64,000 nt of DNA from Xanthomonas sp. SI (GTDB taxonomy: Bacteria; Pseudomonadota; Gammaproteobacteria; Xanthomonadales; Xanthomonadaceae): the NCBI RefSeq assembly GCF_014236855.1, contig NZ_CP051261.1, forward strand, positions 372,001-436,000, in the 5' to 3' direction. A model generated the notes under the pieces. That model searched no databases. It worked only from the letters and a program-made list of their open reading frames with translations, and had not been told where the DNA came from. Of the stretch, positions 14,287-54,412 are shown one piece after another. The position numbers were made by a program, and so were the translations under genes. The number at the start of each line of letters is the position of its first letter. Positions within the stretch are counted from its first letter, which is position 1.

Positions 14287-14497
14287 ACTAGCTGTGCAAC
14301 CCCACTCCGCGCCGCCGCAGCCACAACGCCCAGCGCGCTGAGCACCGCGACGAAGCCCAGCATCAGCGCGCAGGCCACCTACACCGGTACGTAGCTGCTG
14401 CCGAGCAGGCCATAGCGGAAGGCATTGGCCATGTAGAAGATCGGGTTGGCCAGGGTGGCGGCCTCGGCCCAGCCGGGTGGCAGCTTCACCGACGAAT
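14287..14497 (-). pseudogene. Decayed copy of the 3' end of the ABC permease gene
   Basis: This stretch repeats, on the same strand, the last ~205 bases of the permease gene at 15032-15847 with roughly 85% identity by eye, including a 33-base identical run. In the permease frame it reads ...AYALMLGFVAVLSAL-like residues (here ACALMLGFVAVLSAL), but the codon for Trp in VPVWVAYALM has become TAG and a one-base insertion shifts the last residues. Nothing of the first 200 permease codons is present. It is therefore a relic, separated from its parent by one small gene (14583-15035). Confidence 0.78.
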
Positions 14498-14582
14498 ACT
14501 CCCTGGTCGCGACGGCGCCGAGGATCGGGGTGCGCGTCTGGTGGTGCCCTCCGGCGATGTGGAATCCGCCGGCAGGGCCGCG

Positions 14583-15035
14583 CTAGCCCTTGGTGTCCTG
14601 CTTGGTCAGCGGGCCGATCAGGGTCTCGATCCCGGCGCGTACCTCGGCGCACTGCTCGCGGTAGTGCGCCTGGCGTTGCGCCAGGTCCTGGGCGCTGCCT
14701 TGCGCCTCGACGGCGGCCATCAGCTTGCGGAAATCGTCGAAGCCGGCGCGCATCGCAGCGTCGTGGGCGGCCGCATCGAAGGTCACGTTCGCGGCCAGCG
14801 CGCGCTCGCGCGCGGCCTGCTGCAGCGCGTCGGCAAGGCGGGACATCTCGGCCGGCGGCAGGTCGCAGTAACGGGCCTGGGCCAGCTGCGTGCCGTCGGC
14901 CTCGCCCAGCCGGTACAGCGTCTCGGCACCCGGCGCGGCCGGATCCTGGCCGGCGGCGGGCGCGGTAGCAGGCACCGCGGCGGCGCTGCACAGCAGCCAC
15001 AATGACAGCGGCCCGATGGCGCGGCGCGCGCTCAA
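14583..15035 (-). CDS. Secreted protein coupled to the ABC exporter
   Basis: A 150-residue protein that begins at a TTG at 15035 overlapping the permease stop codon (TTGA), which would couple its translation to the exporter. The start is chosen because it yields a good signal peptide (RRAIGPLSLWLLCSAAAVPATA, cleavage near residue 25). The mature part is mostly alpha-helical with two cysteines (ARYCDLPP and REQCAEV). I do not recognise the family. It lies between the intact permease end and a decayed copy of that end, so it may have arrived with the duplication. Confidence 0.65.
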   Translation of the reverse strand: MSARRAIGPLSLWLLCSAAAVPATAPAAGQDPAAPGAETLYRLGEADGTQLAQARYCDLPPAEMSRLADALQQAARERALAANVTFDAAAHDAAMRAGFDDFRKLMAAVEAQGSAQDLAQRQAHYREQCAEVRAGIETLIGPLTKQDTKG

Positions 15036-15847
15036 CTGCGCAATCCCACTCCACGCTTGAGCAGCCACAGCGCCAGCGCGCTGAGCACCGCGACGAAGCC
15101 CAGCATCAGCGCGTAGGCCACCCATACCGGAACGTCGCTGCTGCCGAGCAGGCCGTAGCGGAAGGCGTTGACCATGTAGAAGATCGGGTTGGCGTGGGTG
15201 GCGGCCTCGGCCCAGCCGGGCAGCAGCTTCACCGAATAGAACACGCCGCCCAGGTAGGTCAGCGGGGTCAGGATGAAGGTCGGCACGATCGCCACGTCGT
15301 CGAACTTCTTCGCGTAGACGGCGTTGATGAAGCCGGCCAGCGAGAAGATCGTCGCGCCCAGCAGCACCGTGGTCAGGGTCACCAGCGGGTGCGGGATGCG
15401 TACCGGGGTGAAGAACATGGCGATGATCAGCACCAGCACGCCGACCATCAGCCCGCGCAGCACCGCGCCGGCCACGTAGCCCCATAGGATCACCCAGTTC
15501 GGCATCGGGCTGACCAGCAGTTCCTCGACGTGGCGGCCGAACTTGGCGCCGAAGAAACTGGAGCTGATGTTGCCGTAGCTGTTCTGGATCACGCTCATCA
15601 TCACCAGGCCGGGAACGATGAACTGCATGTAGCTGTAGCCGCCCATGTCGCCCACGCGCGAGCCGATCAGCCCGCCGAAGATCAGGAAGTACAGGGTCAT
15701 GGTGATCGCCGGCGGCACCAGGGTCTGGCCCCAGATGCGCAGGATGCGCTTGACCTCGCGGCGTACCACGGTGCCCAGCGCGACCCAGTTGCGCTGGGTC
15801 GGGGTGGTCTCGGGGAGGAGGGATTGCGGTTTGGCGGTGGTGTTCAT
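15032..15847 (-). CDS. ABC-2 type permease (YadH-like)
   Basis: A 271-residue membrane protein of the ABC-2 permease family with six predicted helices, the membrane half of an exporter whose ATPase is encoded just upstream. Typical features are RREVKRILRIWGQTLVPP before helix 1, a PMPNWVILWGYV coupling region, and the late motif PLTYLGGVFYSVKLLP with WAEAATHANPIFYMVNAFRYG. This is the YadH/NodJ-like subgroup. The substrate is unknown. The ATPase stop lies 21 bases upstream, so the two form one operon with the secreted protein that follows. Confidence 0.93.
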   Translation of the reverse strand: MNTTAKPQSLLPETTPTQRNWVALGTVVRREVKRILRIWGQTLVPPAITMTLYFLIFGGLIGSRVGDMGGYSYMQFIVPGLVMMSVIQNSYGNISSSFFGAKFGRHVEELLVSPMPNWVILWGYVAGAVLRGLMVGVLVLIIAMFFTPVRIPHPLVTLTTVLLGATIFSLAGFINAVYAKKFDDVAIVPTFILTPLTYLGGVFYSVKLLPGWAEAATHANPIFYMVNAFRYGLLGSSDVPVWVAYALMLGFVAVLSALALWLLKRGVGLRS

Positions 15848-15868
15848 TGGCGTCCAGCGAAAGAGGGG

Positions 15869-16882
<1,014 letters not shown>

Positions 16883-16931
16883 GGCGGACCCTTTCGCGCC
16901 CTGTAGACGGCGCTGAAGAAATGCAGCCGCT

Positions 16932-16937
16932 ATTATA
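16932..16937 (-). promoter_or_regulatory. Candidate -10 element for the ABC exporter operon
   Basis: Read on the minus strand these bases are TATAAT, a perfect sigma-70 -10 hexamer, 50 bases before the exporter ATPase start. No convincing -35 is seen 16-18 bases further upstream, which is GC-rich. The same bases lie just before the ribosome site of the divergent reductase gene, so the two promoters must overlap. Confidence 0.38.
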
Positions 16938-16946
16938 GGAGACCTC

Positions 16947-17732
16947 GTGGGCTCGGCCCCGGCCATAGACTGTTGCATCCGCGTGCCTGCCCAATTCCCG
17001 TTGAAACTGGTCGACCGCCACATGCTGGCCCCGGCCGTCGGCCACTACCGCTTCGTCCGCGACGACGGCCAACCGCTGCCGTTCGTGCCCGGCCAGTTCG
17101 TGCAGGTGCACTTCCACTACGCCGACGGCACCGCGACCAAGCGCAGCTATTCGCTTGCCACCCGCCACGACCCGGCGCAGCCGGCCGATGCGACGGTCGA
17201 GATCGCGGTCAGCTTCGTCGCCGGCGGCGCGGCCACGGCATTGTTCGAAGGGCTGGAGATCGGCGGGCAGGTTTGCGCCAGCGGTCCGTACGGCCGCTTC
17301 TGCCTGAACCAGGGCGACAGCAACCGCCGCTACCTGCTGATCGCCACCGGCACCGGCGTCACCCCGTACCGCTCGATGTTGCCGCTGCTGGAAGCGGCGA
17401 TGGCCGAGCGCGGCGTGGAAGTGGTGCTGCTGCTGGGCGCGCGCACGCCGGCCGAGCTGCTGTACGGCGACGAGTTCCGCGCCTTCGCCGACGCGCACCC
17501 GGGCTTCCGCTTCGTGCCGTGCTTCTCGCGCGAGCTGCCGCAGGCGCCGCATGCCGACGTGCGCCACGGCTACGTGCAGCAGTTCCTGGGCGAGTTCGCG
17601 CCACAGGCCGACGGCGATGTCGCCTACCTGTGCGGCAACCCGAACATGGTCGACGCCTGCTTCGATGCGCTGAAGGAAGCCGGCCTGCCGGTGCAGCATA
17701 TCCGCCGCGAGAAGTACGTCAGCAGCAAGTAG
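16947..17732 (+). CDS. Ferredoxin-NADP reductase-like flavoprotein
   Basis: A 261-residue enzyme of the ferredoxin-NADP reductase superfamily that moves electrons between NAD(P)H and a carrier. The FAD domain (about residues 12-110) has the flavin motif RSYSLAT and a following GGAATALFEGLEIGGQVCASGPYGRF. The NAD(P) domain (about 118-255) has LIATGTGVTPYRSM and the late YLCGNPNMVD, and the C-terminus ends KYVSSK. The start is taken as GTG at 16947 because AGGAGA lies 5 bases before it. It is monocistronic and divergent from the ABC exporter. The physiological partner is not apparent from the neighbours. Confidence 0.88.
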   Translation: MGSAPAIDCCIRVPAQFPLKLVDRHMLAPAVGHYRFVRDDGQPLPFVPGQFVQVHFHYADGTATKRSYSLATRHDPAQPADATVEIAVSFVAGGAATALFEGLEIGGQVCASGPYGRFCLNQGDSNRRYLLIATGTGVTPYRSMLPLLEAAMAERGVEVVLLLGARTPAELLYGDEFRAFADAHPGFRFVPCFSRELPQAPHADVRHGYVQQFLGEFAPQADGDVAYLCGNPNMVDACFDALKEAGLPVQHIRREKYVSSK

Positions 17733-17833
17733 CGCCTGCGCGTCGCCGCTGGCCATGCACCAGCGCCTGGTTGCTCGCGTCCTGCCCGCGCCGGACGCTG
17801 CAGCGTTTGCTTGGCACGGGATCCGCGCCTCGG

Positions 17834-18727
17834 CTACGCGGCCGAAGTCAGGCGCTGCCGGGTGTGCTTCATGTCCTTGCCCGGCGGCATGCCGAACATG
17901 CGGCCGTATTCGCGCGTGAACTGGGGAACGCTTTCGTACCCTACGGCCGAGGCCGCCCAGCCGATCGTTGCGCCTTCCGCCAACAGCAGGCGCCTGGCCT
18001 CGATCAGGCGCAGCTGCTTCTGGAACTGCAGCGGGGTCAGCGAGGTGATCGCGCGGAAGTGCACATGGAACGTCGACAGGCTCATTCCCGCCGCGTCCGC
18101 CAACTGCTCCACGCGCAACGGCTTGGCGAAGTCCGAGCGGATCCTGGCCACCGCGCGGCCCACCCGCCGGGCATGGCTGTCGGTGACGCCCAGCGCACGC
18201 ATCGCGCCGCCGTGCCGCCCCGACAGCAGCCAGTAGTGCAACTCGCGCAGCAACTGCGGCCCCAGCACGTGGACCGACGCGGGGCGATCCAGCAGGCGGA
18301 TGAGCCTGTCCGCGGTGTCGGCGACTTCCGCCTCGGTCGGATCGACGCGTAGCGGCGATCCCATCGCGAAAGGGGCCGTGCCCATCTCGGCCACCAGCGA
18401 TGCGATCGTGGCCGGATCCAGCTCCACCACGCAGGCGTAGTAAGGCGCGGCGAGCGAGGCATGGGTGATCTGGCTGACCGTGGGCACTTCCGCGGTGACC
18501 AGCAGGGACTCGCCGGCACCGAAGTCGTAGCTGCTGCTGCCCATCGTGACCTGCTTCCTGCCCTGCAGCACCAGCGCCACCAGCGGCCTGCAGATGGCGT
18601 AGTGCAATGGCGTCGGCCGGGTCTCGCGCAGGATCGCAAGCCCGGGCAAGGGCGTATGCGCGACCCCGTCCTCGTCGACGTTCGCATCGGCGTAGCGACG
18701 CGCGGTTTCCAGCAGATTCGCAGGCAT
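17834..18727 (-). CDS. AraC-family transcriptional regulator
   Basis: A 297-residue regulator. Residues about 25-180 match the AraC_N type ligand domain found in regulators of small dehydrogenase genes (TPLHYAICRPLVALVLQGRK and the GAGESLLVTAEVPT strand). Residues about 195-290 are the double helix-turn-helix AraC DNA-binding domain (PLRVEQLADAAGMSLSTFHVHFR, then GWAASAVGYESVPQFTREY). The ATG is at 18727. It is divergent from the short-chain dehydrogenase at 18964, across 236 bases, the classic arrangement of an AraC protein that controls the neighbouring oxidoreductase in response to an aldehyde, ketone or similar ligand. That regulatory link is inferred. Confidence 0.92.
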   Translation of the reverse strand: MPANLLETARRYADANVDEDGVAHTPLPGLAILRETRPTPLHYAICRPLVALVLQGRKQVTMGSSSYDFGAGESLLVTAEVPTVSQITHASLAAPYYACVVELDPATIASLVAEMGTAPFAMGSPLRVDPTEAEVADTADRLIRLLDRPASVHVLGPQLLRELHYWLLSGRHGGAMRALGVTDSHARRVGRAVARIRSDFAKPLRVEQLADAAGMSLSTFHVHFRAITSLTPLQFQKQLRLIEARRLLLAEGATIGWAASAVGYESVPQFTREYGRMFGMPPGKDMKHTRQRLTSAA

Positions 18728-18963
18728 GCGCAGACCCTAGCGCGTGGCCGCAATGGGCACAATCGGATTGGATGATTGGGCAAGAAATTCGGAAGAAAAG
18801 GCAGGGCGGGGCGAAATTAGCGCAGGAAATTAGTGCTGTTCAAGGTCCGCTGGTGCGAAATCGGGATGAATAGGCAAGAAATGGATGGAATCGGGAAACT
18901 GCGCGGGGCCGTTCCGGCCGATCGTCTCTGCACCCCGCAACATCCACCCCGCTGGAGATTCCC

Positions 18964-19719
18964 ATGACGTCCATTTCGCTCATCACCGGTGCCAACCGCG
19001 GCCTCGGCCGCAATACCGCCATCAGCATCGCCCGCCGTGGCGGCGATGTCCTGCTGACCTACCGCAACGGCGCCGACCAGGCCAAGGCCGTCGTCGCCGA
19101 AATCGAGGCGATGGGCCGCAAGGCGGTGGCCTTGCCGCTGGACGTGAGCGACGTTGCGTCCTTCGGCACCTTCGCCGACGCTGTGCGCAGCGCGCTGTCC
19201 GGTACCTGGTCCCGCACCGGCTTCGACCACCTGCTCAACAATGCCGGTCATGGCGAGATGGCCATGCTCGCAGAGACGACCGAAGCCCAGTTCGACGCGC
19301 TGTTCGCGACCCACGTCAAGGGCGTGTACTTCCTGACCCAGGCGCTGCTGCCGCTGATCGCCGATGGCGGCCGCATCGTGAACTTCTCCTCCGGCCTGAC
19401 CCGTGTATCGATGCCGGGCTTCTCGGCCTACGCCGCCGCCAAGGGCGCGGTCGAGATCCTGTCGATCTACATGGCCAAGGAATTCGGCGGCCGCGGCATC
19501 GCGGTGAACACCGTGGCCCCGGGCGCGATCGAAACCGACTTCCTGGGCGGCGCCGTGCGCGACCTGCCCGATCTGAACAAGCAGTTCGCCGACATGACCG
19601 CCCTGGGGCGGGTGGGCGTGCCCGACGATATCGGCCCGATGGTCGCCAGCCTGCTCGGCCCGGACAACCGCTGGGTCAACGCGCAGCGGATCGAGGTCTC
19701 GGGCGGGCAAGCCATCTGA
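18964..19719 (+). CDS. Short-chain dehydrogenase/reductase
   Basis: A 251-residue classical SDR. It shows the cofactor loop TGANRGLGR (residues 8-16), NNAG, the active-site Ser in NFSSG, Tyr156 and Lys160 in YAAAK, and the late VNTVAPGAIETDF. An arginine after the first beta strand region (TYRNGA) favours NADPH. The substrate is unknown. The ATG has GGAGATTCCC before it. It is divergent from an AraC regulator that probably controls it. Length and motifs are complete, so it should be active. Confidence 0.93.
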   Translation: MTSISLITGANRGLGRNTAISIARRGGDVLLTYRNGADQAKAVVAEIEAMGRKAVALPLDVSDVASFGTFADAVRSALSGTWSRTGFDHLLNNAGHGEMAMLAETTEAQFDALFATHVKGVYFLTQALLPLIADGGRIVNFSSGLTRVSMPGFSAYAAAKGAVEILSIYMAKEFGGRGIAVNTVAPGAIETDFLGGAVRDLPDLNKQFADMTALGRVGVPDDIGPMVASLLGPDNRWVNAQRIEVSGGQAI

Positions 19720-19966
19720 CCGACGGTTCCACGAGGTTCGGGAGGGCGTCGGCCTGCTGGCCGGCGCCCTTCGTGCGGCGACGGCAGACCGAGTTGCCCG
19801 ACGGCATCGCCTGTTGCCAGTGGCTGTAAAGGACGCTTGACAGCTGCTGCCGGCGCGCGCATCCTCCTGTAAAGCGTGCTTGACAGGGGGATGTAATGCG
19901 GAACGTCGTAATGGCATTCAATCGGTACCGGCTGTGGCCGGCCAGCGTTGTGGTCGGGGTCCGGCC

Positions 19967-20548
19967 GTGACCCGCTGCAAGCGCAGTGCGATCGTGGTGT
20001 TGAGCGTGAGCGTCGCGTTGCTCGCGGTCACGCCATGGCTGCGGTGGTTGCGCGGCGACGATTACTTTCGCGGGCTGTGGTTCGGTGTGTGCATCGGCGG
20101 CGTGTTGCTGGCGCTGATGCTGTGGTGGTCGTCGGGCAGCATGCGCGACAGCGCGGTGCCGGCGCTGGCGCGCCGCTACTACCGTGAACTGGGTCCGCCG
20201 ATGCTGATCTACGTCGTGGTGATGCTGTGCTGGAAGCGCTTGCTCGACAGCGTGGACGCGGACTGGGCGCGGGTATTGATTGCGCTGCTGCCGGCAGTAC
20301 TGGTGGCGCTGGTGATCCGTGCGGTGGCGCGCTTCGTGCGCGACTCCGACGAGATGCAGCGGCGCATCGAGCTGGAGTCGATCGCCATCGCCGCCGGACT
20401 GGTCGCCGGCGGTTACATGACCGCCGGTTTCCTGCAGGCGGCGGGCACGATCGCGGTGCCGGCAACGGTGGCGATGCTGTGGGTGTTCCCGTTGCTGTGC
20501 GCGACCTACGGCATCGCCAAGGGCGTGAATGCGCGCCGCTACCAATGA
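19967..20548 (+). CDS. Integral membrane protein paired with an XRE regulator
   Basis: A 193-residue protein with about five or six hydrophobic helices and a basic N-terminus. No family is named with confidence; the combination of a small multi-helix membrane protein with a 66-residue XRE regulator overlapping its end is common in bacteria. The middle loop has RDSDEMQRRIELESIAIAAG, a segment shared by many such partners. The start is uncertain: GTG at 19967 fits the beginning of the first helix, while a frame extends upstream to 19880 without coding character. The last four bases overlap the regulator's ATG, so the two are co-translated. Confidence 0.68.
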   Translation: MTRCKRSAIVVLSVSVALLAVTPWLRWLRGDDYFRGLWFGVCIGGVLLALMLWWSSGSMRDSAVPALARRYYRELGPPMLIYVVVMLCWKRLLDSVDADWARVLIALLPAVLVALVIRAVARFVRDSDEMQRRIELESIAIAAGLVAGGYMTAGFLQAAGTIAVPATVAMLWVFPLLCATYGIAKGVNARRYQ

Positions 20549-20745
20549 ACAGCCGCGTCCGCGAACTGCGCGAGGCGCGCGGCTGGTCGCAAGGCGAGCT
20601 GGGCGAGCGGCTGGGCGTGTCGCGGCAGACCATCAACGCGCTGGAAACCGGCAAGTACGATCCGAGCCTGCCGCTGGCGTTCCGTATCGCGCGGCTGTTC
20701 GCGCACAGTATCGAGCAGGTGTTCCTGTTCGACGATTCCGAGTAG
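20545..20745 (+). CDS. XRE-family small transcriptional regulator
   Basis: A 66-residue Cro/C1-type helix-turn-helix protein with VRELREARGWSQGELGERLG and VSRQTINALETGKYDPSLPL, the complete five-helix DNA-binding fold and the YDPSLPLAFRIARLF end typical of the YozG-like group. The ATG overlaps the stop of the membrane protein (ATGA). It probably senses or regulates something together with that membrane protein, perhaps its own operon, but no operator is visible. Confidence 0.9.
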   Translation: MNSRVRELREARGWSQGELGERLGVSRQTINALETGKYDPSLPLAFRIARLFAHSIEQVFLFDDSE

Positions 20746-20827
20746 TCCTTCCGACCTGCCATCGGTCACCTACGACGCCATGCTCCGGCATGGCATCCTG
20801 CAAGCCATGAACTCAAGGATGCGAACC

Positions 20828-22345
20828 ATGCGACACCCATGCAGACCGCTCGCGATCGTCGCGGCGACCTTGCTGCTCGCCGCCTGCCAAGGCGGACACG
20901 GACCGGCACCGCAGAATGCGGGGCGCAGCTACGGCACGCTGCGCTTCCATCCCTGCACGTTGACCAGTCCGGTCGCGTCCAACAACGTCGAGGCGCAATG
21001 CACGCGCATGCCGGTGCCGGAGAATCCGGCGCTGCCTGGCGGGCGCAAGATCGAGCTCAACATCGCCTGGCTGCCGGTCACCGGCCAGGGCGGCAGCGAT
21101 CCGGATCCGGTGTTCTTCCTCGCCGGCGGTCCGGGCCAGGCGGCGACCGAGGTGGCCAGCATCGTCGACATGGCTTTGCGCGAAACGCGCAAGCGCCGCG
21201 ACGTGTTCCTGATCGACCAGCGCGGCACTGGCCAGTCCAATCCGCTGACCTGCCTGGGCGCGGACGGCAAAGAAATGCAGCTGGCCGATCCTGCGCGCGC
21301 GCCCACCGCCAACGAGTTGCTCGACTACGCGCGGCGTTGCGCGCAGTCGCTGCAGGGCCGCGCCGATCCGCGCTACTACACCACCACCCAGGCCATTGCC
21401 GACCTGGATGCCGTGCGTGTCGCGCTCGGCACGGACAAGCTCAACCTGATCGGCGGTTCCTACGGTACCCGCGTCGCCCAGCAGTATGCGGCGCGCTATG
21501 CGGCGCACACCCGCAGCGTGGTGATCGACGGCGTGGCGCCGAACGACCTGGTGGTCGGCGGCGAATTCGCCACCACCTTCGAGGATGCGATCAAGCTGCA
21601 ATCGGAGCAGTGCCGGGCCACCCCGGCCTGCGCCAAGCGCTTTCCCACCGACACCCGCGCGCAGCTGCGCACGGTGGTGGAACGGCTGCGGCAGGCGCCG
21701 GCGGACGTGGACTATCGCGACCCGGCCAGCGGCGAGAGCAAGCACGACCGGGTGACCGCCGACACCGTCACCAGCCTGGCGTTCTCGTTCTCGTATGCGC
21801 CGCAGACCGCGTCGTTGTTGCCGCTGGTGCTGGACGAGGCCGCGCACGAGCGCTATGCGCCGCTGATGTCGCTGGCGAAGATGATGGGCAAGCAACTGGA
21901 CGGGCAGATGAACCGCGGCATGCAGTGGTCGGTGATCTGCGCCGAGGATGCCGACCGTTACCATCCGCCTGCCGCCGGTGGCGAAACCCTGCTCGGCCCG
22001 GAGGTGGCGCAGATGTTCTTCGCCGCCTGTCCGGCATGGCCGACCGGGACGCGTCCGGCCGGTTTTACCGCGCCGTTCAAATCCGAACTGCCGGTGCTGC
22101 TGACCTCCGGCGAGCTGGATCCGGTGACCCCGCCGCGCTATGCCGCGCGCGTGTTGCAGGGCCTGCCCAACGGCCGCCACCTGGTGGTGCGCGGCCAGGG
22201 CCACGGCACCATGACGTTGGGTTGCATGCCCAAGCTGCTGAGCCAGTTCTTCGAGAACGCCGATGCCAAGCAGCTCGACGCCACCTGCCTGGACGCGATG
22301 AGCGGCGTGCCGGCCTTCACTTCATTCAACGGATGGGAACCATGA
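20828..22345 (+). CDS. Alpha/beta-hydrolase lipoprotein (tripeptidyl aminopeptidase type)
   Basis: A 505-residue secreted hydrolase of the proline-iminopeptidase/tripeptidyl-aminopeptidase type. A lipobox LLAAC places lipidation at Cys20. The alpha/beta-hydrolase core has an oxyanion loop LAGGPGQAATE, a DQRGTGQS segment, nucleophile GGSYGT (Ser211) and, in the TAP-like C-terminal part, Asp431 (SGELDPVTPP) and His459 (GQGHGT). It probably removes short N-terminal peptides in the periplasm or at the outer membrane. The ATG at 20828 is the last of three in-frame candidates and best fits the signal peptide and AAGGA spacing. It is followed 31 bases later by an ABC exporter operon. Confidence 0.89.
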   Translation: MRHPCRPLAIVAATLLLAACQGGHGPAPQNAGRSYGTLRFHPCTLTSPVASNNVEAQCTRMPVPENPALPGGRKIELNIAWLPVTGQGGSDPDPVFFLAGGPGQAATEVASIVDMALRETRKRRDVFLIDQRGTGQSNPLTCLGADGKEMQLADPARAPTANELLDYARRCAQSLQGRADPRYYTTTQAIADLDAVRVALGTDKLNLIGGSYGTRVAQQYAARYAAHTRSVVIDGVAPNDLVVGGEFATTFEDAIKLQSEQCRATPACAKRFPTDTRAQLRTVVERLRQAPADVDYRDPASGESKHDRVTADTVTSLAFSFSYAPQTASLLPLVLDEAAHERYAPLMSLAKMMGKQLDGQMNRGMQWSVICAEDADRYHPPAAGGETLLGPEVAQMFFAACPAWPTGTRPAGFTAPFKSELPVLLTSGELDPVTPPRYAARVLQGLPNGRHLVVRGQGHGTMTLGCMPKLLSQFFENADAKQLDATCLDAMSGVPAFTSFNGWEP

Positions 22346-24301: not shown

Positions 24302-24305
24302 AGCC

Positions 24306-47474: not shown

Positions 47475-47694
47475 CGTCGCGCGCTGTCTACATTTTGCTG
47501 TCGCTTGCCTCGCATCGCGCCGCTTGTGCGATGCGCACATGCCACGAAGTGCAAAGCGCAACGCACATGGGCGAGTACCGCAGTCACAACAGCAGGCACG
47601 CATGCATCGTGCCTATCGCAGTCATAGCAACTAACGAATTCTCAGCCTGCAGTGCCGCCGCCATGCTTCAGCTCCCTCAACACGAGCTGACGCC

Positions 47695-49218
47695 ATGCGC
47701 CCTGGAACACTGTTGGTGCTCGCCCTGCTGTCGCAGACCCTGATCGTTCCCGCCGGGTTCGCGCAGTCCACGCTCACCCGCGACAACGGTGCGCCGGTCG
47801 GCGACAACCAGAACTCGCAGACCGCCGGCGCCACCGGCCCGACCCTGCTGCAGGACGTGCAGCTGATCCAGAAGCTGCAGCGCTTCGACCGCGAGCGCAT
47901 CCCCGAGCGCGTGGTGCATGCGCGCGGCACCGGCGTGCATGGCGAGTTCACCGCCAGCGCCGACATCTCCGACCTGACCAAAGCCAAGGTGTTCGCTGCC
48001 GGCGCGAAGACCCCGGTGTTCGTGCGCTTTTCCTCGGTGGTGCACGGCAACCATTCGCCGGAGACGCTGCGCGATCCGCACGGCTTCGCCACCAAGTTCT
48101 ATACCAGCGAAGGCAACTGGGACCTGGTCGGCAACAACTTCCCGACCTTCTTCATCCGCGATGCGATCAAGTTCCCGGACATGGTGCATGCATTCAAGCC
48201 GGATCCGCGCAGCAACCTGGACGACGATTCACGCCGCTTCGATTTCTTCTCGCACGTGCCCGAAGCCACGCGCACGCTGACACTGTTGTACTCCAACGAA
48301 GGCACGCCGGCCGGCTACCGCTTCATGGACGGCAACGGCGTGCACGCCTACAAGCTGGTCAACGCGCAGGGCGAGGTGCACTACGTCAAGTTCCATTGGA
48401 AGTCGCTGCAAGGCCTGAAGAACCTGGATCCGAAGCAGGTGGCGCAGGTGCAGGGCAAGGACTACAGCCACCTGACCAACGACCTGGTCGGCGCGATCAA
48501 GCAGGGCGACTATCCGAAGTGGGATCTGTACATCCAGGTGCTGAAGCCGGAAGACCTGGCCAAGTTCGACTTCGATCCGCTGGATGCGACCAAGATCTGG
48601 CCGGACGTGCCCGAGCGCAAGATCGGGCAGATGGTGCTGAACAAGAACGTGGACAACTTCTTCCAGGAGACCGAGCAGGTGGCGATGGCGCCGGCCAACC
48701 TGGTGCCGGGCATCGAGCCGTCGGAAGACCGCCTGCTGCAGGGGCGCATCTTCTCCTATGCCGATACCCAGCTATACCGCGTCGGCACCAATGGCCTGAG
48801 TCTGCCGGTGAACCGGCCACTGGTGGCGGTCAACAACGGCAATCAGGACGGGTCGATGAACTACGGCGCCACCGCGAGCGGCGTCAACTACGAGCCGAGC
48901 CGGCTCGCCCCGCGCCCCCAGGATCCGAACGCGCGCTACAGCCAGCTGCCGCTGTCGGGCAGCACCCAGCAGGCCAGGATCGCCCGCGAGCAGAACTTCA
49001 AGCAGGCCGGCGAACTGTTCCGCAGCTATAGCAAGAAGGAACAGCAGGACCTGATCCAGAGCTTCGGTGAATCGCTGGCCGGCACCGACGATGCAAGCAA
49101 GCACATCATGCTGTCGTTCCTGTACAAGGCCGATCCGGCCTACGGCAGCGGCGTCGCCCGCGTCGCCAAGGGCGATCTGGCGCGGGTCAAGCAGCTGGCC
49201 GCGCAACTGCAGGATTGA
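47695..49218 (+). CDS. katB: Periplasmic catalase (KatB-type)
   Basis: A 507-residue haem catalase with a signal peptide (LLVLALLSQTLIVPAGFAQ, cleavage about residue 24), so it protects the periplasm from hydrogen peroxide. Distal His75 (ERVVHARGTG), an Asn in VGNNFPTFFIRDA and the proximal haem-ligand Tyr355 (RIFSYADTQLYR) are all present. It lies 69 bases upstream of an ankyrin-repeat gene, the katB-ankB arrangement known from Pseudomonas, where the ankyrin protein supports catalase activity. The start is ATG at 47695. An OxyR-regulated promoter is expected but I see no sure site. Confidence 0.93.
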   Translation: MRPGTLLVLALLSQTLIVPAGFAQSTLTRDNGAPVGDNQNSQTAGATGPTLLQDVQLIQKLQRFDRERIPERVVHARGTGVHGEFTASADISDLTKAKVFAAGAKTPVFVRFSSVVHGNHSPETLRDPHGFATKFYTSEGNWDLVGNNFPTFFIRDAIKFPDMVHAFKPDPRSNLDDDSRRFDFFSHVPEATRTLTLLYSNEGTPAGYRFMDGNGVHAYKLVNAQGEVHYVKFHWKSLQGLKNLDPKQVAQVQGKDYSHLTNDLVGAIKQGDYPKWDLYIQVLKPEDLAKFDFDPLDATKIWPDVPERKIGQMVLNKNVDNFFQETEQVAMAPANLVPGIEPSEDRLLQGRIFSYADTQLYRVGTNGLSLPVNRPLVAVNNGNQDGSMNYGATASGVNYEPSRLAPRPQDPNARYSQLPLSGSTQQARIAREQNFKQAGELFRSYSKKEQQDLIQSFGESLAGTDDASKHIMLSFLYKADPAYGSGVARVAKGDLARVKQLAAQLQD

Positions 49219-49286
49219 CCGTTCACTGCGTAGTGCGGCGGCGCCTCCCCCACGCCGCGCTGCGCCTTCTTTGCCGGAGACCGAGC

Positions 49287-49832
49287 ATGCGTCGCTTCCT
49301 TCTTCTCGCCCTGAGCCTGGTCGCCGTCTCGGCGACCGCCGCGCCCGCACCCGCCGACCCGGCCAAGATCCAGGCGCAACTGCGCGACTACTTCTTCGAT
49401 GCCGCGCGCGAAGGCCGCCAGGACATGCTGGCCGAGTTCATCCAGGCGCACTACGACCTCGATACCCGCGACGACAAGGGCTATACCGCGCTGATCCTGG
49501 CCGCCTACCACGGCCAGCAGCCGGCGGTGGAGCAATTGCTGCGCGCCGGCGCCGATCCGTGCGCGCAGGACAAGCGCGGCAACACCGCACTGATGGGCGC
49601 GATCTTCAAGGGCGAACTGGCCATCGCCAAGCGGCTGATGCAGGCCGATTGCGCGCCCGACCAGCGCAACAACGCCGGCCAGACCGCAGCGATGTACGCG
49701 GCGCTGTTCCAGCGCACCGAAGTGCTGAAAGATCTCGCCGCCAAGGGCGCCGACCTGCAGGCAAAGGACGCACAGGGCAACGACGTGGCCAAACTGCAGC
49801 GTGGCGAGTTCGCGCAGGCACCGCTGCGCTGA
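49287..49832 (+). CDS. ankB: Ankyrin-repeat protein (AnkB-like)
   Basis: A 181-residue protein with a signal peptide (FLLLALSLVAVSATAAPAPA, about 21 residues) and three ankyrin repeats (about 55-165): KGYTALILAAYHGQQPAVEQ, RGNTALMGAIFKGELAIAKR and AGQTAAMYAALFQRTEVLKD. In Pseudomonas the homologous AnkB next to katB is needed for full periplasmic catalase activity, so the same helper or scaffold role is likely here. GGAGA lies before the ATG at 49287. No other function is evident. Confidence 0.88.
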   Translation: MRRFLLLALSLVAVSATAAPAPADPAKIQAQLRDYFFDAAREGRQDMLAEFIQAHYDLDTRDDKGYTALILAAYHGQQPAVEQLLRAGADPCAQDKRGNTALMGAIFKGELAIAKRLMQADCAPDQRNNAGQTAAMYAALFQRTEVLKDLAAKGADLQAKDAQGNDVAKLQRGEFAQAPLR

Positions 49833-50049
49833 GCCACGCAGGAGAAGCGCGGTGCGCCTAGGCATGGCCGGCGCGCTGCAGGCGAGCACGGTGGTTCAGC
49901 CGCCGACCATGGCGCCGAAGCCCCGGGATCGGCGAAAATACCCGCCCTGCCGGGCAACTACGGCTTCCTGAAACACGCTTCGCGCTGCCGCTGCCCGTTC
50001 GCTGCAAGGACTGGCTACGCCGCATCGCCGGCGCGCCCGCCGCGCTGTC

Positions 50050-51657
50050 GTGCCTTCGCTTCTTCCTGGATCCGTCTTGAACACCACCGCCTCGCCCCCT
50101 GCCGCCGACGACCTGCCCCTGACCGAGCGCCTGCGCGTCGCCCTGGACCTGCTCGAAGCCATCGATGCCGACCGCAGCGTGCTCGACGCGCTGCCCGAGG
50201 CCGACCGCGTGCGCCTGCACCAGGTCGTCGCCAAGGTCTATCACCCTGAGCCCAAGGCGCGCCGGCAACTGCTCAAGCAGCAGGCGCGCGAACGCCACCA
50301 GGAGAAGGTGCGCAAGGCCGAAGCGCTGCTCGAGCAGACCGGCATCCGCGCGCTGCGGCGCAAGCCGGTGTTCAGCACGCCGAACTACTTCCCGCCGCAT
50401 GCCGCCGGCCTGCACGACGCCAGCAATGCCGCGGCCGCCGAACCCGCGGCGGCGCAGTCGCCCGAGCTGCGCCACTGCTACGTGTGCAAGCAGAAATTCA
50501 CCCAGCTGCACCATTTCTACGACCAGATGTGCCCGGCCTGCGCCGAACTGAACTACTTCAAGCGCACCGAGAGCGCGGACCTGCGCGGGCGCGTGGCGCT
50601 ACTGACCGGCGGTCGGGTCAAGATCGGTTACCAGGCCGGGCTGAAGTTGCTGCGCGCCGGTGCCGAGCTGATCGTGACCACGCGCTTCCCGCGCGATTCG
50701 GCCGCACGCTACGCGCAGGAACCGGATTTCGCCGAGTGGGGCCATCGCCTGCAGGTGTTCGGCCTGGACCTGCGCCACACACCCAGCGTCGAAGCGTTCT
50801 GCAGCCAGCTGCTGGCCACGCGCGAGCGGCTGGACTTCATCGTCAACAACGCCTGCCAGACCGTGCGCCGGCCGCCGCAGTTCTACGCGCACATGATGGC
50901 CGGCGAGACCGCCGCGCTGCACGAATTGCCCGAGCACGTGCGCCGCCTGGTTGGTCATTACGAAGGCCTGCGCAGCCCGGAACTGCTGCCGGCGGCGTCG
51001 GCGACCACGCTGCCGGCGGGCCAGGGCCACGGCATCAGCGGCGCCGACGGGCTGACCCGTGCTGCCGAACTGTCGCAGGTGCCGTTGCTGGCCGACGAAC
51101 TGCTCGGCCAGCAGCACCTGTTTCCCGAAGGGCGTCTGGACCAGGACCTGCAGCAGGTGGACCTGCGCGGGCGCAACTCGTGGCGCCTGCTGATGGCCGA
51201 AGTACCGTCGGTGGAATTGCTGGAGACGCAGCTGGTCAACGCCATCGCCCCGTTCATCATCAACGCGCGGCTCAAGCCGCTGATGCTGCGCACGCCCGAG
51301 CGCGACAAGCACATCGTCAACGTGTCGGCGATGGAAGGGCAGTTCTACCGCAACTTCAAGACCACCCGGCATCCGCACACCAACATGGCCAAGGCCGCGT
51401 TGAACATGATGACCCGGACCTCGGCAGCCGATTACCAGAACGACGGCATCCACATGAACAGCGTGGATACCGGCTGGGTCACCGACGAAGATCCGGCCGA
51501 GATCGCCGCGCGCAAGGTGCAGGAAGAACGCTTCCACCCGCCGCTGGACATCGTCGACGGCGCCGCGCGCATCGTCGATCCGATCATCCACGGCTGCAAC
51601 ACCGGCGAGCACGTGTGGGGTCAGTTCCTGAAGGACTACGCGCCGACGGATTGGTGA
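50050..51657 (+). CDS. Zinc-ribbon short-chain dehydrogenase
   Basis: A 535-residue protein. Residues about 30-110 are helical and basic; about 140-170 form a zinc ribbon-like CYVC...CPAC pair; the rest (about 180-530) is an SDR-type domain with a nucleotide loop LTGGRVKIGYQAGL and the later FIVNNACQTVRRP, NVSAMEG and HTNMAKAALNMM, in which the classic YxxxK appears altered to TNMAK. The unusual long insertion between residues 280 and 370 and the N-terminal zinc part suggest a distinct family. Start GTG at 50050, with TTG at 50077 an alternative. The function is unknown. A decayed copy of its 3' end is found about 1 kb downstream. Confidence 0.85.
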   Translation: MPSLLPGSVLNTTASPPAADDLPLTERLRVALDLLEAIDADRSVLDALPEADRVRLHQVVAKVYHPEPKARRQLLKQQARERHQEKVRKAEALLEQTGIRALRRKPVFSTPNYFPPHAAGLHDASNAAAAEPAAAQSPELRHCYVCKQKFTQLHHFYDQMCPACAELNYFKRTESADLRGRVALLTGGRVKIGYQAGLKLLRAGAELIVTTRFPRDSAARYAQEPDFAEWGHRLQVFGLDLRHTPSVEAFCSQLLATRERLDFIVNNACQTVRRPPQFYAHMMAGETAALHELPEHVRRLVGHYEGLRSPELLPAASATTLPAGQGHGISGADGLTRAAELSQVPLLADELLGQQHLFPEGRLDQDLQQVDLRGRNSWRLLMAEVPSVELLETQLVNAIAPFIINARLKPLMLRTPERDKHIVNVSAMEGQFYRNFKTTRHPHTNMAKAALNMMTRTSAADYQNDGIHMNSVDTGWVTDEDPAEIAARKVQEERFHPPLDIVDGAARIVDPIIHGCNTGEHVWGQFLKDYAPTDW

Positions 51658-51707
51658 GTGGGCGGGGAGGCCATGCGTCGCCGGCCTCCCGGAAACCGCT
51701 GCGCGAT

Positions 51708-52004
51708 TCAGCCCGGTTGGCGCAGCCGGTGCGCCTTGAACAGGGTTCCCAGCCAGTTACCCAGCCGGCCGGTCATCCAGCGCAGGCCGAGAAACCAGAG
51801 ACAGGCAGGCCATACCAGCAAGGCGATGCCGAGCGTCAACAGCTCGAGGTCGAATGCCGTCATCGTGCCGGCCACGTAGCAATCTCCGCGAGGCGGGCAG
51901 CCCAGCTCCGCGTACAGGCGTTCGATCCTGTCGGAGAGCGCCAGCGGAACGTAGGCGAGCGCGAGCCACCACAAGGATTGGATGATGCGCTTGAGCAGGA
52001 CCAC
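51708..52004 (-). CDS. Small membrane protein
   Basis: A 98-residue protein with two hydrophobic helices (SLWWLALAYVPLALS and ELLTLGIALLVWPACLWFLGL) separated by a loop with two cysteines (GCPPRGDC). GAGGAG lies 4 bases before the inferred GTG start at 52004. It follows the 141-residue membrane protein gene after 7 bases and must be co-transcribed with it. No family recognised. Confidence 0.68.
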   Translation of the reverse strand: MVLLKRIIQSLWWLALAYVPLALSDRIERLYAELGCPPRGDCYVAGTMTAFDLELLTLGIALLVWPACLWFLGLRWMTGRLGNWLGTLFKAHRLRQPG

Positions 52005-52011
52005 CTGCTCC

Positions 52012-52437
52012 TCAACCTGATTGATCGGAGCCGGCCGTGGAGGCGGCCTGGTCGTTTTCGCGGCCCCAGAACTCCACCAGGATGGTCATGGCGGTCCACA
52101 CGATCAGCGTTGGCTGGACCTTGCCGGGGATGACGTCATTCGCTCTGAGCACCAGGTCGGCCATCCTGGGGAAGCTCAGCACCAGCACGGTCGTATAGAT
52201 CGCATAGGCGACCCTGTGCCGGCTGTTGGAGATGAAGAGGATGGAAATGACGATGCCGGACAGCAGGGTCAGCACGACGCCGAACTGCCAGTTGTTGAGC
52301 GTTTCGGTACCGGTGAGGACGAACCCCAGCACGGCGCCGAAGAACATGTTCATGCCGTTGAGGTTTGCCTGATATTCGTCACTGGACATTTTCCCCAGGC
52401 CGGTCTTGCCGAAGACACCGCCGAACTTCTTCCACAT
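52012..52437 (-). CDS. Membrane protein
   Basis: A 141-residue protein with about four hydrophobic stretches (MNMFFGAVLGFVLTG, WQFGVVLTLLSGIVISILFI, VAYAIYTTVLVLSFPRMAD, LIVWTAMTILVEFWG). The first 28 residues are polar and Gly-rich. The ATG at 52437 has AAGGGGAT before it. It forms a two-gene operon with the 98-residue protein. The operon points toward the zinc-ribbon SDR gene and lies between that gene's intact and decayed 3' ends. Function unknown. Confidence 0.68.
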   Translation of the reverse strand: MWKKFGGVFGKTGLGKMSSDEYQANLNGMNMFFGAVLGFVLTGTETLNNWQFGVVLTLLSGIVISILFISNSRHRVAYAIYTTVLVLSFPRMADLVLRANDVIPGKVQPTLIVWTAMTILVEFWGRENDQAASTAGSDQSG

Positions 52438-52622
52438 GAGACATCCCCTTTGTCTGCGACGCGATCTAGATCGCCCATTTCCCGCTGCATCGAGCGTTCG
52501 GCAACGCCTGCGCCCCCGCGCGGCATCCACCATGTTCCCCGTTCCCGGCCCCGGCCGGTCGGCCCTGCGGCCAGCAGCCAACTCTAGCGGAGATTGGCGA
52601 TGGCCACAGCACGACCGCTGCA

Positions 52623-52775
52623 GGGATCGCCGCACTCGCGGTGCGGGAAGAGCGCTTCTATCCAAGGTGGGGCAGCCTCGACGGCGCCATGCGCATCGTC
52701 GATGCGGATCATCCACGGCTGCAAAGCCGGGGAGTCGGCGTGCGGACATGGGCGTATCGCTTGGCCAAGGACGCT
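52623..52775 (+). pseudogene. Decayed copy of the 3' end of the zinc-ribbon SDR gene
   Basis: This stretch resembles the end of the gene at 50050-51657 (parent bases about 51499-51645), same strand. Translated, IAALAVREERFYPRWGSLDGAMRIVD matches the parent's IAARKVQEERF, DIVDGAARIVD; after a one-base insertion the match continues as IIHGCKAGE against IIHGCNTGE. Identity is about 70-75% by eye. No stop-to-start structure survives, so it is a relic. The two small membrane-protein genes lie between it and its parent. Confidence 0.68.
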
Positions 52776-52859
52776 TTCCGATGCGCGGCGCATTCCGGCG
52801 CTTGCGCTTTGCCGGCCGCGATGCAGAATCCGGCATCGACCCAAGCGCAGAGCGACGAC

Positions 52860-53222
52860 ATGGCCTCCGATGCCAGCTACGTGGATTACGTCATGGAACA
52901 GGCGGCGCTCGGCGCCGCGCTGACCTGCAAGAAGATGTTCGGCGAATACGCGCTGTATCTGGACGGCAAGGTGGTGGCGTTCGTCTGCGACAACCAGGTC
53001 TTCGTCAAACCGACCGCCGCCGGGCGCGCGCTGCTCGACGACGTGATCGAACAGGCGCCGTATCCTGGCGGCAAGCCGCACTACCTGATCGACGAGGGGC
53101 TGGAGGATCGGAGCCTGTTGCAGCGCCTGCTGCGCGCCACCGCACAGGCATTGCCCGCTCCCAAACCGGCCAAGGCGGCCAAGGTCGGCAAACGCGCAAG
53201 CCGGCCGCCGGCGCCGCGCTAG
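52860..53222 (+). CDS. TfoX N-terminal domain protein
   Basis: A 120-residue protein that is the TfoX_N domain alone: YVDYVMEQAALGAALTCKKMFGEYALYLDGKVVAFVCDNQVFVKPT, then EQAPYPGGKPHYLIDEGLED and a Lys/Arg/Pro-rich tail. Full-length TfoX/Sxy, which controls competence genes in gammaproteobacteria, also has a C-terminal HhH-type domain that is missing here, so this may be a small relative rather than the competence master. ATG at 52860 is chosen over 52821 because it fits the domain start. The upstream bases are the SDR relic. Confidence 0.85.
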   Translation: MASDASYVDYVMEQAALGAALTCKKMFGEYALYLDGKVVAFVCDNQVFVKPTAAGRALLDDVIEQAPYPGGKPHYLIDEGLEDRSLLQRLLRATAQALPAPKPAKAAKVGKRASRPPAPR

Positions 53223-53258
53223 GTCGCGCGTCGTTTCCCGGAATCCTGCAGCGACGCT

Positions 53259-53726
53259 TCAGGTCAGCGCGTGCAACTCGCCGCGGACGCCGCCTGCCTG
53301 CAGATGCAGATAGCCCACTCCGATCGGCAGGCTGAAACGGCGCGGTCCGGCACTGCCGGGATTGACGTACAGCACGCCGTCACGGGTCTGCAGCAGCGGC
53401 TTGTGCGAATGCCCGCTGACCACCACGTCCACGGATGCGGGGTCGCGCGCCAGCGTCTTCAGATCGTGCAGCACGTGTAGGCGGATGCCGGCGATGTCGA
53501 GGTCCAGCGTGTCGGGCAGCGCCTGCGCCCATGGCGCGGTATCGATGTTGCCGCGGATCGCATGCAGCGGCGCCAGCGCACGCAGCGCATCGAGGATCTC
53601 CGGCTTGCCGATGTCGCCGGCATGCACGATGGCCATGCAATCGCGCATCGCCGCCAACGCCTGTGGCCGCAACAGGCCGTGGGTGTCGGAGATCAGGCCG
53701 ATTCGCAGCGGCGGGACGGAAGGCAT
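53259..53726 (-). CDS. YfcE-like metallophosphoesterase
   Basis: A 155-residue calcineurin-type phosphodiesterase. The metal-binding motifs are complete: ISDTHG (Asp14, His16), HAGDIGK, IRGNID and SGHSHKP, plus NPGSAGPRR, all typical of the YfcE/MJ0936 group, which cleave phosphodiester model substrates with Mn2+. The natural substrate is unknown. The start MPSVPPLRIG is at 53726. A decayed copy of its first 100 bases and upstream region lies at 54251-54412, and the gene at 53832-54173 is between them. Confidence 0.93.
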   Translation of the reverse strand: MPSVPPLRIGLISDTHGLLRPQALAAMRDCMAIVHAGDIGKPEILDALRALAPLHAIRGNIDTAPWAQALPDTLDLDIAGIRLHVLHDLKTLARDPASVDVVVSGHSHKPLLQTRDGVLYVNPGSAGPRRFSLPIGVGYLHLQAGGVRGELHALT

Positions 53727-53831
53727 CGGCAGGGCTTGGCAACGGGACGGAGTGCTAGCCTAAACCCCACGTTCGCAAGGCCGCGTGCCGGTCTGAGCGA
53801 AAGACTCCTTTCACCACGTCGCGAGAACCAC

Positions 53832-54173
53832 ATGCCTGCAGCGCTCGATCGGGAACCAGCGGCCTACGTGGAAAAGGCCGACGCCGCCGCGATCCAGGTC
53901 CGGGCGATGCGTGGCGAACACGATGCGGCGCTGCGTGCGCTCGGTTTCGCATGCACCGGCGAGGCCGGCGTCCATGCCATGGTGGTGCACGACGACGCGG
54001 AAAAGGCCGAGGCCTTCCACGCGCTGCGCGAACTCGGCCTGGCCTTTGCCGCCGGAAGGGAATGGTGCCCGGCAGAGGTCTTCTGCTATCTGCGCGACAA
54101 GGGACTGCTGAGCGGACCGTTCCTGTGCATCGCCTGGACCCAGCCGGGCCGTTATCGAGTGGAGGAGGCGTGA
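53832..54173 (+). CDS. Hypothetical protein
   Basis: A 113-residue soluble protein with no signal peptide and no recognised family. It has a helical pattern (AIQVRAMRGEHDAALRALGFAC, EKAEAFHALRELGLAFAAG) and a cluster WCPAEVFCYLRDKGLLSG, which together recall small acetyltransferase- or antitoxin-like proteins, but no motif decides. The ATG at 53832 is the first in a coding-like frame. It is divergent from the metallophosphoesterase and lies inside its duplicated flank. Confidence 0.66.
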   Translation: MPAALDREPAAYVEKADAAAIQVRAMRGEHDAALRALGFACTGEAGVHAMVVHDDAEKAEAFHALRELGLAFAAGREWCPAEVFCYLRDKGLLSGPFLCIAWTQPGRYRVEEA

Positions 54174-54250
54174 TCGCGTGCCACGCGGACCGGCTGCTCG
54201 CGACCGCCGCATCCTGGCCGAGTCGTCACGCGCATTGGCGCGCGTGGTCG

Positions 54251-54412
54251 CTACGTCATGGTGACGCGATCGCGCATTGCCGCCTGCGGCCGCAGCAGGT
54301 CGCGGATGTCGGAGATCGGAGCCGATTCGCAGTGGCGCGACCGAAGGCATCTGCGGCGGCCTGACGGGAGGCCGATAGCCTACCGCTCAGGCGTCCACGT
54401 TCGCCCAGGCTC
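54251..54412 (-). pseudogene. Decayed copy of the 5' end and promoter of the YfcE-like gene
   Basis: Read leftward from 54350 it gives MPSVAPLRIG as in the parent MPSVPPLRIG, then a one-base insertion, then ISDIRDLLRPQAAMRDRVTM against ISDTHGLLRPQALAAMRDCM, and ends at a TAG. The metal-binding DTH has become DIR. Similarity continues upstream of the start for about 60 bases (TAGCCTA...CCACGTTCGC). About three quarters of bases match. It cannot encode an active enzyme. Confidence 0.75.

What the first reader, a model, noticed from the sequence alone, without database searches (positions are those of the whole stretch)
14287..54412. A recurring pattern: small accessory genes lying between an intact gene end and a decayed same-strand copy of that gene end
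At three separate places a partial, same-orientation, decayed copy of an intact chromosomal gene end lies a few hundred bases from the intact gene (permease 3' end; zinc-ribbon SDR 3' end; YfcE-like 5' end plus promoter). In each case one or two small genes of unknown function sit between the two copies. Three such units in 64 kb, each with a different parent gene, is more than I would expect from chance. One explanation is uptake of related DNA in which recombination used homology at one end only, leaving an extra partial copy of the anchor gene and delivering new genes. Another is tandem duplication followed by loss. The mechanism is inference; the copies are visible.
Basis: partly seen in the sequence, partly recalled or inferred. 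Interest (0 to 1): 0.75.

Follow-up and report, generated by a model that had tools for sequence, protein, structure and literature searches.

The report
Stacked gene variants with leftover ends
In this Xanthomonas-type chromosome, versions of one locus that sister species carry as alternatives have been joined end to end, and the decayed gene ends lying between them are the scars of those joins.

Summary
The three decayed same-strand gene-end copies are real and well above shuffled controls, but they mark two loci, not three. Unit 1: the window holds, end to end, two haplotypes that sister species carry as alternatives: panE-[Tad-pilus cluster]-OmpA-C-A (G014, G012, G011, G005) and panE-B-A (G013, G015, G007, G009). 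The 'copy' is the last ~200 bp of the first haplotype's A, joined to a ~33-bp stub of the second one's panE. Units 2 and 3 belong to one composite locus, shared by 3 of 20 genomes (G000, G004, G015). In G015 the SDR remnant runs on collinearly into the gene that follows intact SDR in G010 and G017, and three further joins of the same geometry follow. Two more such loci turned up in sampled parts of the same genome, with empty sites in sisters. Purely local duplication plus loss fits units 1 and 2 badly. Best reading: homologous recombination on one side, a non-homologous join on the other, stacking alleles instead of swapping them. The mechanism is known (HFIR; Vibrio T6SS immunity arrays). 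Its record at ordinary chromosomal genes, with parent haplotypes still extant, is the new part. Copy-to-parent identity does not identify the donor.

The parts
1..139 (-). 5' end of the intact panE gene (ketopantoate reductase), downstream anchor of the unit 1 locus; the gene continues left of the window
   Evidence: window -801..139 collinear with panE of G013, G015, G007, G009; open frame in L365 carries ApbA and ApbA_C; intact orthologue L351:18176-19120, PF02558
200..12400 (-). Tad/Flp-pilus-type gene cluster (T2SSE+FHA, T2SSF x2, TadE x2, RcpC/CpaB, Tad), part of haplotype H2
   Evidence: Pfam; collinear with G014 at 91% and with G012, G011, G005 at 82-83%
12768..13802 (-). OmpA-domain protein, haplotype H2
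   Evidence: next to C and A in G005, G011, G014, partly deleted in G012
13834..14169 (-). gene C, 111 aa, no family match, haplotype H2
   Evidence: next to intact A in G005, G011, G012, G014 (4 of 20); no Pfam, NCBIfam or PADLOC hit
14292..14492 (-). A': 5'-truncated decayed 3' end of the ABC permease gene, end of haplotype H2
   Evidence: collinear with the A-C junction of G014 (14268-14492), G012, G011, G005; second copy listed in G000 only
14505..14537 (-). panE stub, first ~33 bp of a decayed panE, end of haplotype H1; joined head-to-tail to A'
   Evidence: 33-bp overlap in G013, G015 and G007
14583..15035 (-). gene B, 150 aa, no family match, TTG start overlapping the stop of A
   Evidence: present next to A in G006, G007, G009, G013, G015 (5 of 20); no hit
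15032..15847 (-). A: intact ABC-2 permease
   Evidence: PF01061, NF011648
50050..51657 (+). intact SDR-domain gene, left anchor of units 2/3
   Evidence: PF00106, PF13561; present in all 20 loci compared
51708..52004 (-). M98, 98 aa, no family match
   Evidence: next to SDR in G004, G007, G013, G014; no hit
52012..52440 (-). M142, 142 aa, no confident family match
52602..52748 (+). SDR': decayed 3' end of the SDR gene, start of the type I haplotype segment
   Evidence: shared with G004 and G015; in G015 collinear with the SDR-f20 junction of G010 and G017
52860..53222 (+). TfoX_N-domain gene
   Evidence: PF04993
53259..53726 (-). intact YfcE-family phosphodiesterase gene
   Evidence: TIGR00040, PF12850
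53833..54173 (+). gene R, no family match
   Evidence: present in G004, G014, G015; no Pfam or PADLOC hit for the frame
54258..54410 (-). YfcE': decayed 5' end and promoter region of a second YfcE, next to the phosphoesterase gene
   Evidence: longer remnant in G015 7571-7828
54411..56111 (-). acid phosphatase / phosphoesterase gene ('PLC' in the text)
   Evidence: TIGR03397, PF04185
57567..58724 (-). AI-2E-family transporter (f1), right anchor of the variable region
   Evidence: PF01594

Best explanation
Shown: unit 1 and the units 2/3 locus are junctions between alternative haplotypes of the same chromosomal locus, placed head to tail. At each junction the left-hand piece ends too late or the right-hand piece starts too early, so a gene end is present twice: intact in one haplotype and truncated at the join in the other. 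Unit 1 reads panE-Tad-OmpA-C-'A' | panE'-B-A. Units 2/3 read SDR-M98-M142 | 'SDR-(f20 lost)-TfoX-YfcE-R | 'YfcE-PLC. Inferred: related DNA entered the cell (transformation being the simplest route), paired homologously on one side of the locus, and was closed on the other side by a non-homologous join with little or no microhomology (homology-facilitated illegitimate recombination). A normal two-sided exchange would have swapped one module for the other; the unequal one keeps both. The truncated copy has no function, decays afterwards, and stays as a scar. Ku, present in this genome, is a candidate for making the non-homologous join.
For: Haplotypes found apart in sisters: B in 5 of 20 loci, C in 4 of 20, both only in the window. 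Collinearity over the whole pieces: window -796..12375, 12778-14256 and 14268-14492 with G014 3014..18597, the last piece being G014's intact A; window 14505-17000 with G013, G015, G007 and G009, with 28-33 bp of panE overlapping. SDR' of G015 continues through the intergenic stretch into f20 exactly as intact SDR does in G010 and G017; G004 keeps that intergenic stretch after losing f20. G015 carries further joins: R-f12' collinear with G014 6456-7128, then 'YfcE; f1' (95% to intact f1), then YfcE'' running on collinearly into the G007/G013 order. Junctions in G015: f1'|YfcE'' nearly blunt, f12'|'YfcE with a possible 4-bp AGTA; unit 1 a possible TTCGG (read by eye from decayed sequence). Ku in 17 of 20 genomes incl. 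G000; Competence domain PF03772 in 20 of 20, though that domain also rings in 10 of 14 control genomes. Two further loci with duplicated gene ends around inserts and single-copy sites in sisters, no recombinase among the ten insert or neighbouring proteins tested.
Against: Copy-to-parent identities do not point to a donor: 14 of 20 sites at which A' differs from A are private to A'; the other 6 lean to G014/G012/G018/G003 (5-6 shared with A'), but G003 and G018 are not H2 carriers. YfcE' groups with its own clade, not with the G003-type carriers of YfcE-f5-PLC, and no genome seen has YfcE directly beside PLC, so the parent haplotype of unit 3 was not found. G014 joins M142 to f20 with no SDR scar. 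Locus (c/d) needs a foreign insert and two non-homologous joins. Only 5 of 84 pairwise insertions show a duplicated flank, one of them att-like. Unit 1 rests on one assembly. Which haplotype was resident is open. Three genomes without Ku are too few to test its role.
Confidence: 0.7

Rival explanations
1. Local tandem duplication of the locus followed by loss of different parts from the two copies, with no foreign DNA.
For: The join geometry (right end of the locus against its left end) is exactly that of a tandem duplication; YfcE' is as close to its own parent as to any other; 30 of 31 non-adjacent repeat pairs in the 800-kb sample are direct.
Against: Losses would have had to restore, on each side, the exact gene spacing of two haplotypes seen apart in sisters: A-C as in G014/G012/G011/G005 and panE-B-A as in G013/G015/G007/G009, and SDR-f20 as in G010/G017. 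Each lost gene would have to be lost from the one copy in which sisters also lack it.
Confidence: 0.12
2. A local tandem duplication or merodiploid formed first (as described for transformation in pneumococcus), and one of the two copies was later exchanged for a foreign allele by ordinary homologous recombination.
For: Gives the same final structure; transformation-induced tandem duplications with foreign alleles are documented (PMC3784515, abstract and passages).
Against: Two events per junction instead of one; described duplications are ~100-900 kb and form at repeats, whereas no repeat is visible at these joins.
Confidence: 0.15
3. Circularised or plasmid-borne donor DNA integrated by a single crossover in the anchor gene (insertion-duplication).
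For: Predicts an intact anchor on one side and a truncated one on the other, with nothing lost; fits unit 1, the f12'|'YfcE join and locus (b).
Against: Needs circularisation; does not by itself give the two-sided unit 2/3 insertion with part of the second YfcE missing. No plasmid search was run.
Confidence: 0.15
4. Site-specific integrative elements or integron cassettes using gene ends or attC sites.
For: Gene 3' ends are common integration sites; attC arrays lie near the units 2/3 locus in G006, G013 and G017; the window has two decayed attC-like sequences at 60557-60589 and 62228-62246.
Against: Copies include a 5' end and vary from ~33 to ~380 bp; no tRNA in the window; no integrase among proteins tested; no attC-like match at the units.
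Confidence: 0.04

Closest known systems
Orphan immunity-gene arrays of Vibrio cholerae T6SS clusters (Kirchberger et al. 2017, PMC5361080; abstract and passages seen)
   Same: Successive incoming modules anchored by homology on one side and joined illegitimately on the other; older modules stay downstream, and in their model the 3' end of an earlier effector gene is shifted back.
   Different: There the anchor is the secretion gene itself and selection on immunity keeps the old genes; here anchors are ordinary genes (permease, SDR, phosphodiesterase), the kept modules have mostly unknown function, and the scar is the duplicated anchor end.
Homology-facilitated illegitimate recombination in Acinetobacter, Streptococcus and Pseudomonas stutzeri (de Vries and Wackernagel 2002; Prudhomme et al. 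2002; Meier and Wackernagel 2003; seen only as cited in PMC3784515, PMC5361080 and PMC9711863)
   Same: One homologous side, one non-homologous join in related-plus-foreign DNA.
   Different: Those are laboratory events; donor, uptake route and time are unknown here.
Transformation-generated merodiploids of Streptococcus pneumoniae (PMC3784515; abstract and passages)
   Same: Unequal exchange that leaves tandem copies carrying donor and recipient alleles.
   Different: ~100-900 kb duplications through repeats; here kilobase-scale stacks joined without visible repeats.
Minimal mobile elements of Neisseria and similar gene swapping between conserved flanks (recalled; the search listed no paper holding that phrase)
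   Same: Alternative gene modules between conserved flanking genes, moved by recombination in the flanks.
   Different: Those swap modules cleanly; here modules add up and leave a scar.
T6SS effector swapping in Pseudomonas aeruginosa (PMC11751169; passages)
   Same: A dominant homologous breakpoint and a less precise second one, read as the same mechanism.
   Different: Replacement rather than stacking at effector loci.

Membership tests
Homology-facilitated illegitimate recombination product | One junction without extended homology, with no or short microhomology | tested here: met
   Unit 1 and the G015 joins: unrelated sequences meet (A vs panE, f1 vs YfcE, f12 vs YfcE), at most ~5 bp shared, by eye in decayed sequence
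Homology-facilitated illegitimate recombination product | The other boundary lies in homologous sequence | tested here: inconclusive
   Flanks are collinear with sisters on both sides, but no homologous crossover point could be located
Homology-facilitated illegitimate recombination product | Donor DNA from another lineage | tested here: inconclusive
   Haplotype content matches other species; copy identities do not single out a donor
Vibrio-type immunity-gene array | Stacked modules with remnants of the displaced gene | tested here: met
Vibrio-type immunity-gene array | Modules are effector-immunity pairs of a secretion system | tested here: not met
   Anchors are permease, SDR and YfcE genes; B, C, M98, M142 and R have no Pfam match at 0.01; functions not tested at the bench
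Local tandem duplication | Both copies carry the same neighbours in the same order, apart from losses | tested here: not met
   A-B-panE' and 'A-C-OmpA-Tad-panE match two different extant haplotypes; 'SDR-f20
Integrative element at a gene end | Recombinase gene between the repeats | tested here: not met
   No recombinase domain in the window or insert proteins given to Pfam; not every frame was scanned
Integron cassette insertion | attC site at the module boundary | tested here: not met
   Two patterns made from the genus' own attC sites match only at 60557-60589 and 62228-62246

The most novel reading that the evidence does not exclude
In this genus, allele stacking is a standing route of genome growth: DNA of sister species is taken up, anchored homologously on one side and closed by Ku-type end joining on the other, so that variable loci ratchet upward by adding whole alternative alleles. 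The decayed anchor ends then form a readable record of order and direction, four or more layers deep at the SDR-f1 locus of X. bonasiae FX4 (G015).
Probability: 0.25. Interest if true: 0.75.

Novelty: new variant of a known kind. Interest (0 to 1): 0.5.

Why it matters
How genes with no mobile element of their own come to sit between conserved genes is usually inferred from presence and absence alone. Here the joins themselves are preserved, and the parent haplotypes still exist in sister species, so the order of events at a locus can be read and the role of end joining and of uptake becomes testable by counting scars. It also warns that a decayed gene copy beside its parent need not mean local duplication.

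Tried and rejected
Copy-versus-parent phylogeny as a donor test: run for A', SDR' and YfcE' and uninformative, because private decay dominates (in one search the window and G004 SDR' rows align poorly). Integron cassettes as the cause: attC arrays are near the locus in sisters but not at the units; the genome-wide attC pattern had too short a gap and its zero result says nothing. Anti-phage function of the small genes: no PADLOC match for B, C, M98, M142, TfoX, R, f12 or f22. Two sampled repeat pairs were dropped as not of this kind: (a) L267, two proteins with a shared XVIPCD end; (e) L280, a dispersed intergenic repeat of ~550 bp with many copies. Other sampled pairs (for example L289 42342/49589 in block coordinates) were not checked in sister genomes. 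The blocks at 3.3 and 4.6 Mb were not compared with sisters. A Ku-less control genome was not scanned.

Rfam found nothing at gathering thresholds in the window. Structure prediction and homologous-protein searches were not used.
Full report
What the window is. The window is G000:C1:372001-436000 of a 5,246,417-bp single-contig genome. Nineteen other genomes of its genus are held. Equal contig lengths tie G002 to X. albilineans CFBP2523, G005 to Xanthomonas sp. NCPPB 1128, G009 to X. sp. AmX2, G015 to X. bonasiae FX4, G019 to X. sp. F10, G020 to Stenotrophomonas sp. MMGLT7 and G035 to X. arboricola NL_P126.

Observation. All three copies are there, on the same strand, partial and decayed, and well above shuffled controls. 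They are the only direct or inverted repeat pairs in the window at the thresholds.

Unit 1. Gene order around the permease A was mapped in 20 loci. Five have A followed by B (G006, G007, G009, G013, G015), four have A followed by C (G005, G011, G012, G014), the rest have neither, and only the window has both. In most A-B genomes and in several without B, panE follows; panE was confirmed by Pfam in G013 and, as an open frame, in the window's left neighbour. In 14 loci compared over 20-26 kb, the window from panE through the Tad-pilus cluster, OmpA and C to A' is collinear with G014 (91.1, 90.5 and 87.6% in three pieces), where the last piece is the intact A, and with G012, G011 and G005 at about 80-83%. 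From 14505 rightwards the window is collinear with G013, G015 and G007 (90-93%) and, from 14510, with G009 (88.8%), and here the 28-33 bp at the left end of the match are the start of panE. So the window reads haplotype H2, then haplotype H1, joined between a point ~200 bp inside A and a point ~33-45 bp inside panE. B starts with TTG overlapping the stop of A (sequence). The panE stub has lost its ATG (ACG in its place).

A' differs from A at 20 aligned sites; 14 are private to A'. At the other six, G012, G003 and G018 share the A' state at 6, G014 and G011 at 5, while G013, G010 and G009 share the A state at 4. This leans towards an H2 origin but is weak, since G003 and G018 do not carry H2.

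Units 2 and 3. Between SDR and the AI-2E transporter gene f1 lies a variable region. SDR-f20 (a prolyl-oligopeptidase-family gene) is found in G010 and G017, with TfoX and YfcE following in G010. SDR followed by M98 and/or M142 and then YfcE is found in G007 and G013, and SDR-(f18)-M142-YfcE-f5-PLC-f1 in G005, G012 and G018, with close variants in G003, G008, G011 and G019. The window and G004 carry SDR-M98-M142, then SDR', then TfoX-YfcE-R, then YfcE', then PLC. G015 carries the same with better-kept remnants. In G015 the SDR remnant, the intergenic stretch and f20 align without a break to G010 and G017; G004 keeps the stretch but not f20; the window has lost more. G014 has M142 joined to f20 without a scar. 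Hence SDR' is the end of an SDR that came with f20-TfoX-YfcE, and not a copy thrown off by the neighbouring SDR.

G015 shows further joins of the same geometry: YfcE-R-f12' (collinear with G014 6456-7128, 83.7%) against 'YfcE; and f1' (199 bp, 95% to the intact f1) against YfcE'', which runs on into the order of G007 and G013 (11971-13961, 77-78%). The window lacks the ~260 bp of G015 that hold f12' and part of YfcE', so its R-YfcE' boundary is a later deletion. YfcE' of the window and G015 group together (0.84) and within the clade of G004, G010, G014, G015 and the window; no genome seen has YfcE directly next to PLC. Unit 3 is therefore the least explained.

Junctions. f1'|YfcE'' is nearly blunt; f12'|'YfcE may have used AGTA, and unit 1 TTCGG. 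These are readings of decayed sequence. None is a long homologous crossover.

How general is it? In 800 kb sampled from G000, one search lists 30 direct and 1 inverted repeat pairs; many of the direct ones are ordinary paralogues or repeats within one gene. Two were checked and are of this kind. (b) G000:725404-725784 and 730744-731117 (89%) flank a 4.96-kb insert with an HSP70-family gene and a DUF4259 gene; G007 has one contiguous copy; G004 has its own 0.9-kb insert with a 115-bp duplicated flank at the same place. (c/d) M24-peptidase 3' end and a piece of a beta-lactamase-fold gene recur on both sides of a 5-kb insert with a TonB-dependent receptor gene; G004, G014 and G006 have the two genes adjacent, and G015 shares the insert. 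Chaining G000, G004 and G014 over two 200-kb blocks gave 84 pairwise insertions of 200 bp or more, not independent of each other, of which 5 have a duplicated flank of 40 bp or more: two at (b), two at (c/d), and one of 44 bp that looks like an attachment site. All 5 lie in the 0.6-Mb block; the 1.5-Mb block had none. So this is a minority route, unevenly spread. At roughly 2 verified loci in the 400 kb compared, finding 2 in 64 kb is mildly more than expected, and the window was picked because it showed them; I do not claim an excess.

Machinery. Ku is found in 17 of 20 genomes, including G000, and not in G001, G002 and G016. The ComEC-type Competence domain is found in 20 of 20 but also in most control genomes, so it does not prove competence. 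No paper listed was read for transformation of Xanthomonas.

Known kinds. The mechanism that fits is homology-facilitated illegitimate recombination. Its nearest natural record is the Vibrio T6SS immunity array (PMC5361080, passages), with effector swapping in P. aeruginosa (PMC11751169, passages) and merodiploid formation in pneumococcus (PMC3784515, passages) as relatives. The searches listed no paper on such scars at ordinary chromosomal genes in Xanthomonas; only listings were seen, and most subscription papers are not held. The attC arrays near the locus agree with the ilvD integron of Xanthomonas (PMC12444791, passages; IlvD confirmed in G007) but do not explain the units.

Verdict. That the copies are ends of alternative haplotypes is strong for units 1 and 2 and open for unit 3. 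One-sided recombination is the best mechanism but is inferred; direction and donor are unknown.

Noticed in passing
L093 (G013) 7013-11342, L097 (G017) 8840-11630, L086 (G006) 9236-11898: Arrays of ~60-bp attC sites between small genes, lying between YfcE and ilvD in G013: the chromosomal integron borders the units 2/3 locus.
   Followed up: partly
window 60557-60589 and 62228-62246 (-): Two decayed attC-like sequences on either side of a trypsin-like gene: probably a remnant of the integron array in the window.
   Followed up: partly
L280:6389-6970 (G000:1566389-1566970): A dispersed intergenic repeat of about 550 bp with many copies in most genomes of the genus; unidentified.
   Followed up: no
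window 200-12400: The Tad-pilus cluster between panE and OmpA has two allele classes: ~82-91% alike in G014, G012, G011, G005, and only ~72% alike at the same place in G004, G017, G003, G018.
   Followed up: no
G001, G002, G016: The three genus members without a Ku match; G002 and G016 are the two small genomes (3.5-3.7 Mb).
   Followed up: no
window 59991-60536 (-): NADAR-domain gene that also matches the PADLOC candidate model PDC-M42C (5e-38), near the attC remnants.
   Followed up: no
L267:9802-14118: Two neighbouring genes share an 87%-identical 3' end that encodes an XVIPCD (X-Tfes) domain; interbacterial effectors by family name.
   Followed up: no
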